Below, piece after piece: positions 54,583 through 58,331 of a stretch of DNA of 64,000 bases (positions are counted from its first letter, which is position 1; each line of letters opens with the position of its first letter). The notes beneath the pieces were generated by a model. It worked only from the letters and a program-made list of their open reading frames with translations, did not search any database and was not told the DNA's origin. Source of the stretch: Schizochytrium sp. TIO01 (Eukaryota; Sar; Bigyra; Thraustochytrida; Thraustochytriidae); assembly GCA_004764695.1 (NCBI GenBank), contig SMSO01000035.1, positions 4,407,040 through 4,471,039 of the forward strand. The letters are read 5' to 3'. The position numbers and the translations under genes are program-made.

Positions 54583-56565
54583 ATGGGAGCCGAAGAGGCG
54601 CGGAGGCTCGCTCAAACAGATTTTGCAGATACTGAAGACCACAATGTACCATCAAATAGAGCAAATGCACAAGGAACTCGTGTTTTAAGGGAAAATGATG
54701 AAGCATCTTTTCTAAAAATTGATGTGAGTGCTAGCACCAACGCAGGAGCTCGTCAAATCATGAGTCCCTCCCAACGAAAATATAACATGCATGCTCCAAG
54801 CAGTCCAAAGGATCCAAATTTCAAGAGGAAAAGAACAATTCGTCGCTCCAGCGTGGCTACACAGTCAGGATCTAAAACTGAAAATAAACCTTTAAGCTGT
54901 CCACGATGCGGAAAAGAAGGATTTGAGGATGTACGCGCACTCGGAAAGCATGCTATTTCCTGCAAAGCAAAGTCTGACTCACCAGCCGATGCGAGCAAGA
55001 ATCTCCGTTCTCTAGGAAACGACAGGATGGCAAAATTGATGCACATCAAACGTATGCAGCAACAACATGAAGAAAACGAAAAGTCTAAAGAAGAGCAGGA
55101 AAGGATTGAGCGGGAAATGCAGCTCATTATTAAGATGGAGCGTGCTAGAGCTGAGCGTGATGAGATTTTGCAGAAACAAAGACAAGTTCAAGAGCAGGAG
55201 CGACTTGTACGAGAGGCTGAGGAAGCAAAAACTCGACAAGAAAAAGAAGCTCTTGAAAAGCAAATTCAAGCCAGAGCAGAACAACTGATGGTCGACAGTG
55301 ACAGCGATGATGACAATGACGACGATGCCACCGCAGCTGCAGAGAGGCGAAGGCAACTTGCAGAAAAATTAGCCCTTAAAAAACAAGGAAATGCGAAGTC
55401 CTCCAACAAGGTTCATAGCCATTCTTCACCACAATCACAAAACATACTACCAAAAACTGAAGGTAAGACCCAGGCCCATGCAATAAGTGCACAAATCACG
55501 GCATCAACATCAGACTATACGCAACCACACAGGGAGACAGGGGAGGTTATACCTCTGAATGAAGAAGTAGATTGGCTTGCATCTCCTTATGAGAACGAAG
55601 GATACACTGCCGCTCACATGGCTGCGTACTATAATGACGCAGCTCACATGTTGAAGGTGATTGAACTTGGAGGAGATATCCTATCCCCTGATCCTGAAGG
55701 GAAAACCCCCTTGCACATCTGTGCATTATATGCTCACAATGATTGTCTTGAACTTCTGGTTCAAAAGCTTAAGATGATCCCAGGCGGGTTATCAACCTTA
55801 GATAATGAAGGAATGTCAGCTCTCATGTATGCAGCATGTGTAGATAATTTCACTGGCGTTGCTATGCTTGCTGACGCAAACGAAAGTATCCTAGAGAAGG
55901 CGGACTACAATGGTGATACCGCTCTGCATTATGCAGCTTACTATGGATATAAAGACATTGTTGTGTTACTCCTGCAGCTTGGTGCAGATCCTGATGGCCC
56001 CCCAAACAATGAGAATAAATCACCTGCCGTGATGTGCATGAATGCAGAAATCCTCGACCTTCTCGTGTCACACGGTGCAGACTATTACGGGATTGACAAT
56101 AACGGAAGAAGTATCCTTTTTGCCGCGTGTGCAACAGGCCTCATTGACGTTGTTAAATATCTTGTTGATATCAATCCATTAGAGTCAGATGATGCACAAA
56201 ATCTTTTAAATTACGCTGATTTCAGAGGCGATACCCCATTGCACGCTGCTGCATGCAATGGCCATGCAGAATGTGTTAAACTGCTTCTAGACAAGGGCGC
56301 CAAAACTAATATCCTTAATCATGCACAGCTAAGTGCTGCAACCTTGGCTATCTGTGTCGAGCAACGAGAGTGTTCAGCAATATTTAAGGAGCACGGGATT
56401 GAGGCTCAAGATTTAGATGCTGAATGGGAAGTCGCTGACCCAAACGCACCTGAGCATTGGCAGACATACACAGACGTAGACTCTGGTTATGACTATTACT
56501 ATAACAAGTATACAGGTGAGACAACTTGGGAGAATCCTTACCCAGAAATTTTGTCATCATCATAA
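54583..56565 (+). CDS. C2HC zinc finger - coiled coil - ankyrin - WW protein
   Basis: 660 residues from an ATG. Order of domains: a basic disordered leader; a small C2HC-type finger CPRCGKEGFEDVRALGKHAISC read as C106, C109, H123, C127; a charged coiled coil (about 140-225, EEQERIEREMQLI...); an acidic run DSDSDDDNDDD; and six to seven ankyrin repeats (about 325-600). Clear ankyrin repeats start GYTAAHMAAYYND, GKTPLHICALYAHNDC, GDTALHYAAYYGYKD and GDTPLHAAACNGHAEC. A C-terminal WW domain ends the protein (WQTYTDVDSGYDYYYNKYTGETTWENP, broken here as W...YYYN...TTW..P). The whole looks like a multivalent adaptor; binding partners, probably Pro-rich, cannot be named. Its last 28 bp overlap the end of the opposite-strand oxygenase gene, which also has ankyrin repeats. 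No intron was seen. Confidence 0.85.
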   Translation: MGAEEARRLAQTDFADTEDHNVPSNRANAQGTRVLRENDEASFLKIDVSASTNAGARQIMSPSQRKYNMHAPSSPKDPNFKRKRTIRRSSVATQSGSKTENKPLSCPRCGKEGFEDVRALGKHAISCKAKSDSPADASKNLRSLGNDRMAKLMHIKRMQQQHEENEKSKEEQERIEREMQLIIKMERARAERDEILQKQRQVQEQERLVREAEEAKTRQEKEALEKQIQARAEQLMVDSDSDDDNDDDATAAAERRRQLAEKLALKKQGNAKSSNKVHSHSSPQSQNILPKTEGKTQAHAISAQITASTSDYTQPHRETGEVIPLNEEVDWLASPYENEGYTAAHMAAYYNDAAHMLKVIELGGDILSPDPEGKTPLHICALYAHNDCLELLVQKLKMIPGGLSTLDNEGMSALMYAACVDNFTGVAMLADANESILEKADYNGDTALHYAAYYGYKDIVVLLLQLGADPDGPPNNENKSPAVMCMNAEILDLLVSHGADYYGIDNNGRSILFAACATGLIDVVKYLVDINPLESDDAQNLLNYADFRGDTPLHAAACNGHAECVKLLLDKGAKTNILNHAQLSAATLAICVEQRECSAIFKEHGIEAQDLDAEWEVADPNAPEHWQTYTDVDSGYDYYYNKYTGETTWENPYPEILSSS

Positions 56566-58331
56566 ACCATTGCAATTTCACCTCTCAGAATAACTTTTGA
56601 AGCGTGAACTAATCTACCTTCGTGTGGGCACTTGTGAGGAAATACTAAAAGACGACAAGGTTTGGGAGAAACCACATATAGAGCTACCTCAGGCGTCTTC
56701 AGCGATGCTAGCAGAGCAGTTTCTCCACCACTTTTGTTTGAGAAACTCTCGGTAGGATATACTTCATTGCCATCACCAGAATCGGGATGACCAGAGATCT
56801 GACTCCTGGATGAAATATCATCGTCCCCATGGTCACCTTCGAGATATAAAATAAACGTATGCGTTGAGGTGAGTCCGTCACGATCAGTGCGATGAAGGTC
56901 AATATGTGGAGCAAGGGAAATGCCTGGTGAATAGGTCAGTGTCCGCATTGCTGGATACACACGAAGCAACTTTACATTTTCGAGCTGCTGTAATGCTGAG
57001 GATAGAAGAGCCCGTATCCATCCCTGAGAGTCAAGTAAGTACCGCCGCTCCGCTGCTGGCGGAGCATTGGGGCACATAGCTACTGGTTCGATTGTTTGTG
57101 AGGTCTCTAGCAAATAAGTAGCACACGAACGAGAGCACGCATTGTCAATAACGAAGCTTCCAGCGCCTGGGTGTGCTTTGGACCAAGGAATAGCTGTTTG
57201 AACTTGATAACCTTGCGCAGGTGCCCATGGCGGAGATAGATTGAGTGTCAAGTCTACCTGACTAACGCCCAAATTGCACTGTAGATTTGGGCTTGCACCA
57301 GCATCTAACAGTAGGTTTATGATATGGTGAGCCTGCAGAAGCATCGTCGCCCAAATTAATGCTGTTGCGCCGTGCTGATCTCTAGCGTCTACATCTATCC
57401 CTAAGTCGATAAGAGCGCGAACGCGAGGGGCATCTCCGTCAAGCACCGCATTTAAAAACTTTTCCATGCGCCGATCTTGAGTATCGCCAGGCATTTCATA
57501 TTTGGCAATAGTGGGAGATTGCCGCACAAGTTTTGGCTTGGGAGTGGCGTGTAGAGCTTTGATAAACTTTAGTGGAAGTGCTTCAAACATTTCTAAACTT
57601 TGCCTGCGAATTTCTTCTGGAGCACCAAGTGTCGACAGCGCTGGAGGGGGCTGATCATCGGGCTGATGAATACCACACGATGGACATGAGAGAGCAGAGC
57701 TTTTAGAGTCTTTCCGAGAGCTTGCAGAGAGACTGAGAGCTTGAGCTGTACAGGTTGAACATATTGCATGCAAGCATTGTGGCCATTCTAGTAGGTCGAA
57801 TTCATCTTGTAATATCACCTCACAGCTATCGCAACGGCAAGCAGACTCATCAATCTGACCGGACTGTTTTCCTACTTTGCTCTGTCTTGCGTCGTATGCG
57901 GACTTGAGAAAGGCAGCAATCCAGACTTGGGCGCTCGGGGAGAAAAGACGCACACACTTGGTAAGACTTTGACTCAACTCATCTTCGTATTCAGGCAAGA
58001 TTGATGCTCCACCTTGTAAAATAGCAAACGCAATAGCATCCTGCCCCTCGGATAATGCTTCACGCAGCAGAGAGGTTCGATCCAAGTCGATTTGCATTAG
58101 TTTCCGAATTCCGAAGCGAGCCTGCTGGCCTTTCCTTATGCATGAAAGGAGTTCTTCTTCTTCTTCGGCACTAAGAATAGTCTTGGCACGCTCAGTCTCT
58201 ATCTCGCATGAAACTAGAGATGCATTCTTATTACGAGCTGCCCGTCGCCGAGCTGCTCGAGCACACGTTCTACCGACACCCCCACCTTCGCTAGCTGGGC
58301 GCTCCTTACGAGCCACCCGTCTACCGCCCAT
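56538..58331 (-). CDS. RING - ankyrin - 2OG-Fe(II) oxygenase fusion
   Basis: 597 residues from an ATG. A C3HC4 RING pattern is complete: C167, C170, C186, H188, C191, C194, C216, C219, suggesting a ubiquitin ligase module. Ankyrin-like repeats precede (about 88-113) and follow it (about 290-355, with LIDLGIDVDARDQHGATALIWAT split over a repeat, then LLLDAGASPN). The C-terminal ~200 residues form a prolyl-4-hydroxylase-like double-stranded beta helix. It starts SFVIDNACSRSCATYLLE and has the iron ligands H476-x-D478, THTFILYL, GGETALL, and the distal H576 with R583 seven residues later for 2-oxoglutarate. All iron and co-substrate residues are thus in place. Function is inferred as oxygen- or 2OG-dependent hydroxylation coupled to ubiquitination. 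The substrate is unknown, and I do not recall this architecture. Confidence 0.85.
   Translation of the reverse strand: MGGRRVARKERPASEGGGVGRTCARAARRRAARNKNASLVSCEIETERAKTILSAEEEEELLSCIRKGQQARFGIRKLMQIDLDRTSLLREALSEGQDAIAFAILQGGASILPEYEDELSQSLTKCVRLFSPSAQVWIAAFLKSAYDARQSKVGKQSGQIDESACRCDSCEVILQDEFDLLEWPQCLHAICSTCTAQALSLSASSRKDSKSSALSCPSCGIHQPDDQPPPALSTLGAPEEIRRQSLEMFEALPLKFIKALHATPKPKLVRQSPTIAKYEMPGDTQDRRMEKFLNAVLDGDAPRVRALIDLGIDVDARDQHGATALIWATMLLQAHHIINLLLDAGASPNLQCNLGVSQVDLTLNLSPPWAPAQGYQVQTAIPWSKAHPGAGSFVIDNACSRSCATYLLETSQTIEPVAMCPNAPPAAERRYLLDSQGWIRALLSSALQQLENVKLLRVYPAMRTLTYSPGISLAPHIDLHRTDRDGLTSTHTFILYLEGDHGDDDISSRSQISGHPDSGDGNEVYPTESFSNKSGGETALLASLKTPEVALYVVSPKPCRLLVFPHKCPHEGRLVHASKVILRGEIAMVYDDDKISG

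What the first reader, a model, noticed from the sequence alone, without database searches (positions are those of the whole stretch)
56538..58331. RING E3 - ankyrin - 2-oxoglutarate oxygenase in one polypeptide
The sequence shows a complete C3HC4 RING spacing (C167 to C219), ankyrin repeats and a prolyl-hydroxylase-like domain with HxD (476/478), distal H576 and R583, in one intron-free frame. In animals, oxygen-dependent hydroxylation (PHD) and ubiquitination (VHL E3) are separate proteins. A single enzyme that could hydroxylate and ubiquitinate the same client would be a compact oxygen/2OG-responsive degradation switch. I do not recall such a fusion, but could not search.
Basis: partly seen in the sequence, partly recalled or inferred. 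Interest (0 to 1): 0.85.

Follow-up and report, generated by a model that had tools for sequence, protein, structure and literature searches.

The report
RING-like, ankyrin, prolyl-hydroxylase-like fusion protein
A protist gene joins a RING-like zinc module, ankyrin repeats and a prolyl-hydroxylase-type oxygenase in one protein, an unusual domain fusion, but its RING lacks the usual ubiquitin-enzyme contact residues, so the proposed hydroxylate-and-destroy switch remains a guess.

Summary
Window 56538-58331 (-) is one intact 597-aa frame, single copy in its 64-Mb genome (probably a thraustochytrid). It holds eight zinc ligands in exact C3HC4 spacing (C167-C219), about two ankyrin repeats (290-352) and a C-terminal 2-oxoglutarate/Fe(II) oxygenase (380-597), whose AlphaFold model matches prolyl hydroxylases best. 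Two residues are misassigned: the distal iron ligand is H570 (HEG motif), not H576, and the likely 2OG-binding residue is K579, not R583. RING and 2OG match Pfam only below the curated cut-offs; ankyrin passes.

The RING has Ser where the 15 other RINGs retrieved from this genome all have Ile/Val/Leu (main E2 contact), and Gly at the linchpin position. E3 activity is doubtful; coupled hydroxylation and ubiquitination is untested. Proteins joining an oxygenase to an E3 component are not unheard of (KDM2A/B, recalled). I read it as an ankyrin-guided protein hydroxylase with a RING-like scaffold: a new combination of known parts. Ten literature searches listed no such fusion, but listings were capped and no eukaryotic sequence database could be searched.

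The parts
56538..58331 (-). Whole open reading frame, 597 aa (stop included in coordinates)
   Evidence: intact, one match in own genome at E <= 0.001
57675..57833 (-). RING-like C3HC4 zinc module, residues 167-219; S169 at the E2-contact position; G220, just outside, at the linchpin position
57276..57464 (-). About two recognisable ankyrin repeats, residues 290-352
   Evidence: (Ank_2 295-351, above cut-off)
56541..57194 (-). 2-oxoglutarate/Fe(II) oxygenase region, residues 380-597, prolyl-hydroxylase-like fold by model
56898..56906 (-). HxD iron ligands H476 and D478
56622..56624 (-).
56595..56597 (-). K579, likely 2OG-binding basic residue (P4H type)
56583..56585 (-).

Best explanation
The gene encodes a protein hydroxylase of the prolyl-4-hydroxylase-like 2OG/Fe(II) class. 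Shown: the frame, the zinc-ligand spacing, the ankyrin repeats, the iron ligands and, by model, the fold of the last domain. Inferred: the ankyrin stretch and the RING-like zinc module are the docking and scaffold part that brings a client protein to the oxygenase, which hydroxylates it with O2, 2OG and Fe(II) held by H476, D478, H570 and K579. The RING-like module most likely serves protein contact or dimerisation; ubiquitin transfer is possible but not favoured, because S169 and G220 replace the usual E2-contact and linchpin residues.
For: Iron ligands kept in 6 of 6 rows and a basic residue at K579 in 6 of 6 rows of A5 and A6, window protein included; H476, D478, H570, K579, R583 invariant in 5 of 5 rows of A3: the window protein, two same-genome and two bacterial relatives. 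Profile from 14 same-genome 2OG proteins without the window protein: 24.8 bits, reverse not reported. Model pTM 0.73; 211 PDB matches at E <= 0.001, 49 of the 50 listed named prolyl hydroxylase, best E 3.3e-07. The A3 profile (window protein one of its five rows) finds a bacterial P4H, 3itq, at 1.2e-12. Ankyrin above cut-off. Of 15 other RINGs retrieved from the genome, the pre-C2 residue is I/V/L in 15 and the linchpin R in 10; here S and G.
Against: No substrate, activity or expression data. The 2OG match is below the Pfam cut-off, and phmmer of the domain against the PDB gave nothing at E 10. The model rests on 6 sequences, mean pLDDT 66, TM-scores (by query length) 0.44-0.54, rmsd 5.2-8.3 A in the listed matches; its alignment held true 2OG proteins, which may have guided it. 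A low-complexity insert follows D500; aligners differ on whether GGET at 535 or the GDG ending at 521 is the conserved turn. The whole-protein fold failed (mean pLDDT 37), so module arrangement is unknown. The RING comparison set was chosen with an XB3 RING profile and leans to consensus RINGs.
Confidence: 0.6

Rival explanations
1. Active E3: the RING does transfer ubiquitin and the oxygenase does hydroxylate, on the same client or on different ones.
For: All eight zinc ligands in exact C3HC4 order, the Pro of the last CPxC kept, ankyrin module and intact iron ligands in the same chain. 2OG enzymes and E3s are linked elsewhere: KDM2 proteins, PHYa-SKP1.
Against: S169 and G220 at the E2-contact and linchpin positions; 15 of 15 other retrieved RINGs have I/V/L at the first. 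Pfam RING models below cut-off. A profile from 12 of those 15 RINGs aligns only residues 185-219, 18.5 bits. No data on ubiquitin transfer.
Confidence: 0.15
2. The oxygenase modifies ankyrin repeats, its own or those of partners, as FIH does on ankyrin proteins, with the RING as a structural element.
For: Ankyrin repeats lie directly before the oxygenase; FIH hydroxylates ankyrin repeat domains (title and start of abstract of PMC3569879, listing).
Against: FIH is a JmjC-type enzyme (recalled), this fold is P4H-like by model; no hydroxylation data.
Confidence: 0.1
3. A diverged scaffold: RING and oxygenase keep ligands but have lost catalysis, and the protein works through ankyrin contacts alone.
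For: Both modules score below curated cut-offs; no close paralogue in the genome; a low-complexity insert within the oxygenase.
Against: Iron ligands and K579 are kept although identity to relatives is only about 15-28%, which argues for selection on the active site.
Confidence: 0.15

Closest known systems
HEG-type 2OG-FeII_Oxy_3 oxygenases (same-genome L016, L017; planctomycete MAG L043; Sorangium MAG L044). The subgroup name is mine.
   Same: HxD, HEGxxV, K and the R of LRxDV
   Different: L016 and L017 frames hold no C3HC4 pattern, L043 and L044 frames are only 197 and 202 aa; the window protein adds RING-like and ankyrin modules and an insert
Prolyl 4-hydroxylases and PHD2/EGLN1
   Same: Predicted fold, iron ligands, basic residue
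   Different: No MYND finger listed by Pfam at E 1 (that PHD2 has one is recalled); Lys where PHD2 has Arg383 (recalled). Other proteins of the genome look PHD/PhyA-like to me (L004, L005, L012, L018; motifs)
XB3-like ankyrin-RING E3 ligases of plants
   Same: Ankyrin plus C3HC4 RING in one chain (abstract of PMC3596331); best Pfam RING match is XB3/XBAT31
   Different: 23.3 bits against cut-off 50; RING precedes the recognised ankyrin repeats (ANK-then-RING order of XB3 is recalled); an oxygenase follows
KDM2A/KDM2B (JmjC 2OG demethylase plus F-box, recalled)
   Same: 2OG oxygenase and E3 component in one polypeptide; ubiquitin-ligase role mentioned in a passage of PMC5371873
   Different: JmjC rather than P4H-like fold, F-box rather than RING, chromatin targets (recalled)
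S. pombe Ofd1
   Same: P4H-like 2OG enzyme whose inhibition by hypoxia stabilises Sre1 (passage of PMC10371230)
   Different: No RING or ankyrin (recalled)

Membership tests
RING-type E3 ligase | Eight zinc ligands in C3HC4 spacing | tested here: met
   C167-C219; 0 of 200,000 shuffles
RING-type E3 ligase | Match above a curated RING profile cut-off | tested here: not met
   19.5 of 21 (zf-C3HC4), 23.3 of 50 (XB3/XBAT31), 18.7 of 25.2 (zf-RING_UBOX)
RING-type E3 ligase | Hydrophobic E2-contact residue before the second Cys and Arg linchpin after the last Cys (roles recalled) | tested here: not met
   S169 and G220; in the 15 other RINGs retrieved I/V/L in 15, R in 10
RING-type E3 ligase | E2-dependent ubiquitin transfer | not testable with these tools
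   needs an in vitro assay
2OG/Fe(II) oxygenase, P4H-like (PF13640) | HxD...H iron ligands and basic 2OG residue | tested here: met
   H476, D478, H570 in 6 of 6 rows, K/R at 579 in 6 of 6 rows of A5 and A6, window protein included
2OG/Fe(II) oxygenase, P4H-like (PF13640) | Pfam gathering score | tested here: not met
   20.1 (whole protein), 24.2 (domain alone) against 27
2OG/Fe(II) oxygenase, P4H-like (PF13640) | Double-stranded beta-helix fold | tested here: met
   by model only: pTM 0.73 on 6 sequences; 49 of 50 listed PDB matches are named prolyl hydroxylases
HIF PHD/EGLN class | Closer to PHD/PhyA-type than to HEG-type relatives | tested here: inconclusive
   profile of five PHD/OGFOD-like sequences 19.2 bits, of two HEG-type 12.4, of six collagen-P4H-like -0.8; the HEGxxV..K..LR motif agrees with HEG type
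Ankyrin repeat protein | Ankyrin profile above cut-off | tested here: met
   Ank_2 28.1 of 27.3, one stretch
XB3-like ANK-RING family | XB3/XBAT31 RING profile cut-off; ANK-then-RING order (order recalled) | tested here: not met
   23.3 of 50; recognised ankyrin follows the RING

The most novel reading that the evidence does not exclude
A single-chain oxygen/2OG-gated degradation enzyme: ankyrin repeats bind a client, the P4H-like domain hydroxylates it and the non-canonical RING ubiquitinates that same client, doing in one polypeptide what PHD and VHL do in animals.
Probability: 0.1. Interest if true: 0.85.

Novelty: new variant of a known kind. Interest (0 to 1): 0.42.

Why it matters
If the RING is active, this would be a compact oxygen-dependent degradation enzyme outside animals and a direct test of whether hydroxylation and ubiquitination can be coupled in one chain. 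If not, it is still a P4H-like oxygenase tied to docking modules in a protist: a named candidate for regulatory protein hydroxylation. A passage of PMC9618697 cites the HIF/PHD/VHL pathway as not found in choanoflagellates or other protists, though the same paper reports PHD, FIH and VHL homologues in one choanoflagellate and in Ascomycota.

Tried and rejected
H576 as iron ligand and R583 as the 2OG residue: rejected by alignments. XB3 membership: rejected by score and order. Two joined genes: no support, no internal stop, GC3 of 60-codon blocks 0.28-0.48 without a step; RNA would be needed. An in-frame intron in the insert: six GT-AG pairs keep the frame; I saw no convincing pyrimidine tract by eye; not excluded.

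Relatives sought: full protein in viral contigs, 7 pattern stretches, none a relative; A1 in viral contigs, 77 stretches, none; A2 in bacterial/archaeal genome contigs, 37 stretches, 2 relatives, L043 and L044; A3 in viral contigs, 12 stretches, 9 relatives, whose printed frames are 172-225 residues, too short to hold all three modules. Phages, tblastn of the oxygenase: no match at E 0.01. PDB by phmmer: oxygenase none at E 10, RING 8 weak, best 0.23. Full-length single-sequence fold: useless. NCBIfam hits to ankyrin effectors are far below cut-offs and reflect ankyrin similarity.

Literature: ten searches. By titles and abstract starts of the papers listed (20, 20, 20, 10, 9, 1, 6, 15, 12 and 10, of 39, 1441, 1183, 59, 9, 1, 15, 142, 8989 and 10 found) none describes a RING-ankyrin-2OG fusion. 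Two listed papers holding most of the terms were checked by passages: PMC3482391 (no occurrence in the 300,000 of its 357,715 characters that are held) and PMC1654190 (domain tables only). Passages of PMC11241480 and PMC3685328 did not bear on the question.
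Full report
The frame. Window 56538-58331 on the minus strand is one ATG-to-stop frame of 597 residues. Its GC3 is 0.38; two neighbouring long frames have 0.37 and 0.41. The window's genome, G000, has 64.06 Mb in 37 contigs, and the whole protein has one match there at E <= 0.001, itself. The oxygenase alone finds itself and one chance-level match (E 4.4); the N-terminal-to-RING part finds itself and two chance-level matches (E 0.67 and 0.79). The genome holds a PfaA-type polyunsaturated fatty acid synthase above the family cut-off (1157 bits summed in one frame, cut-off 1010); from this I infer, from recalled knowledge, a thraustochytrid. 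No direct test of lineage was made.

The RING-like module. C167, C170, C186, H188, C191, C194, C216 and C219 give exact C3HC4 spacing; 0 of 200,000 shuffles of the protein hold such a pattern. Pfam RING profiles hit below cut-off on the isolated stretch: XB3/XBAT31 23.3 of 50, zf-C3HC4 19.5 of 21, zf-RING_UBOX 18.7 of 25.2. Searching the genome with the XB3 RING profile gave 16 matches at E <= 1, none above the cut-off, the window's own ranking tenth. In the other 15 the residue before the second zinc Cys is Ile, Val or Leu in 15, and the residue after the last Cys is Arg in 10; in the window protein they are S169 and G220. For L037 the pattern may have run too far, so its last position is unsure. 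A profile from 12 of the 15 gives the window protein 18.5 bits (E 0.002 with the database size set to 24,736) and its reverse -7.5, but aligns only residues 185-219. That these positions contact the E2 and stabilise E2-ubiquitin is recalled. A zinc fold is likely; E3 activity is doubtful, not excluded.

The ankyrin repeats. Ank_2 matches residues 295-351 at 28.1 bits against 27.3; ankyrin structures match up to 290-364. About two repeats are recognisable. The stretch before the RING looks helical by eye and in a very poor model and might hold diverged repeats, but no Pfam family matched it at E 10 (protein 4).

The oxygenase. PF13640 scores 20.1 bits in the whole protein and 24.2 on the isolated domain, cut-off 27. 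A profile from 14 other 2OG proteins of the genome (L004-L017; L018 with a stop and L019 with a partial match were dropped) gives 24.8 bits and does not report the reverse. Subset profiles gave 19.2 for five PHD/OGFOD-like sequences, 12.4 for two HEG-type ones (reverse -2.2) and -0.8 for six collagen-P4H-like ones (reverse -1.6). The higher PHD-like score speaks against a firm HEG assignment; the motifs speak for it. In A3 (window protein, same-genome L016 and L017, bacterial L043 and L044) H476, D478, H570, E571, G572, V575, K579 and R583 are invariant in 5 of 5 rows. In A5 and A6, with L043, L044 and three phage-contig proteins, H476, D478 and H570 hold in 6 of 6, position 579 is K or R in 6 of 6, position 583 is R in only 3 of 6, and position 576 is His in the window protein alone. 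The A3 profile finds bacterial P4H 3itq at 1.2e-12, its HGG...K motif lying on HEG...K (the window protein is one of the profile's five rows). H570 and K579 thus take the places of the distal His and 2OG-binding Lys of P4H (roles recalled), not H576 and R583.

The model. AlphaFold on residues 380-597 with six sequences: mean pLDDT 66, pTM 0.73. Foldseek reports 211 PDB matches at E <= 0.001; of the 50 shown, 49 are named prolyl hydroxylases (viral, human PHD2, Pseudomonas, algal, Trichoplax, Dictyostelium) and one a putative oxygenase. TM-scores by query length are 0.44-0.54 and rmsd 5.2-8.3 A, so the fold class is supported, not detail. Among viral predicted structures the best match is a Marseillevirus LCMAC102 2OG oxygenase, E 8e-10. 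An insert rich in Asp, Ser and Gly follows D500; aligners differ on whether GGET at 535 or the GDG ending at 521 is the conserved turn.

The rest of the genome. Of 17 PF13640 matches, 16 pass the cut-off and the window's does not (counts are lower bounds by the tool's note). None of the 16 other frames, as far as they lie in the fetched loci, holds a C3HC4 pattern. Among the 2OG proteins found, the RING fusion is therefore alone.

Mechanism. Shown by sequence and model: zinc ligands, ankyrin, iron ligands, P4H-like fold, one frame. Inferred: ankyrin and RING-like parts dock a client and the oxygenase hydroxylates it (0.6). An active E3 in any form gets 0.15, and its strict form, hydroxylation and ubiquitination of the same client, 0.10, since it needs an active RING despite S169 and G220.

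Comparison with what is known. The parts are known families. The order RING, ankyrin, P4H-like oxygenase appeared in none of the titles and abstract starts listed by ten searches. I read passages of PMC10371230, PMC9618697, PMC5371873, PMC3685328, PMC11241480 and PMC1654190 (a look for terms in PMC3482391 found none) and the abstracts and outlines of PMC3596331 and PMC13223302; no paper was read whole. No eukaryotic genome set or UniProt was available, so absence elsewhere is not shown. 2OG enzymes are linked to ubiquitin ligases elsewhere: PHYa-SKP1 in Toxoplasma (abstract starts), Ofd1-Sre1 degradation (passage), KDM2 proteins (passage). Hence new variant of a known kind, interest 0.42.

Neighbourhood. 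The next frame, 54583-56565 (+), has ankyrin repeats (Ank_2 129 bits) and a WW domain just below cut-off (26.5 of 26.9); the two coding ends overlap tail to tail by 28 bases. Of the 10 frames of 300 aa or more in the window, 8 were scanned: besides these two, a cyclin, a CBF/Mak21 protein, an alpha-mannosidase, a protein kinase and a cyclic-nucleotide phosphodiesterase, and one without a family. Nothing in these eight suggests a mobile element.

Noticed in passing
L040 (G000:C36, match 1807987-1808157, minus): One frame (599 of its 727 residues seen) holds a VHL beta domain (31 bits, 27.5, cut-off 21) after a stretch that I read as P4H-like (SHID ... LPHG); Pfam named no 2OG domain in it. If right, a hydroxylase-like and a hydroxyproline-reader-like domain in one chain, closer to a PHD-VHL fusion than the given finding.
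   Followed up: partly
L013 C-terminus; also L008 C-terminus and the halves before the 2OG domain in L009 and L014: P4H-like proteins with a short extra beta-like module (my reading). In L013 it resembles VHL beta below cut-off (15.4 of 21); in L008, L009 and L014 no VHL match.
   Followed up: partly
54583-56565 (+): Ankyrin protein with a WW-like end whose coding end overlaps that of the studied gene by 28 bases, tail to tail.
   Followed up: partly
L054-L056 (G000:C4:608161-617209): PfaA-type PUFA synthase frames, suggesting a thraustochytrid.
   Followed up: partly
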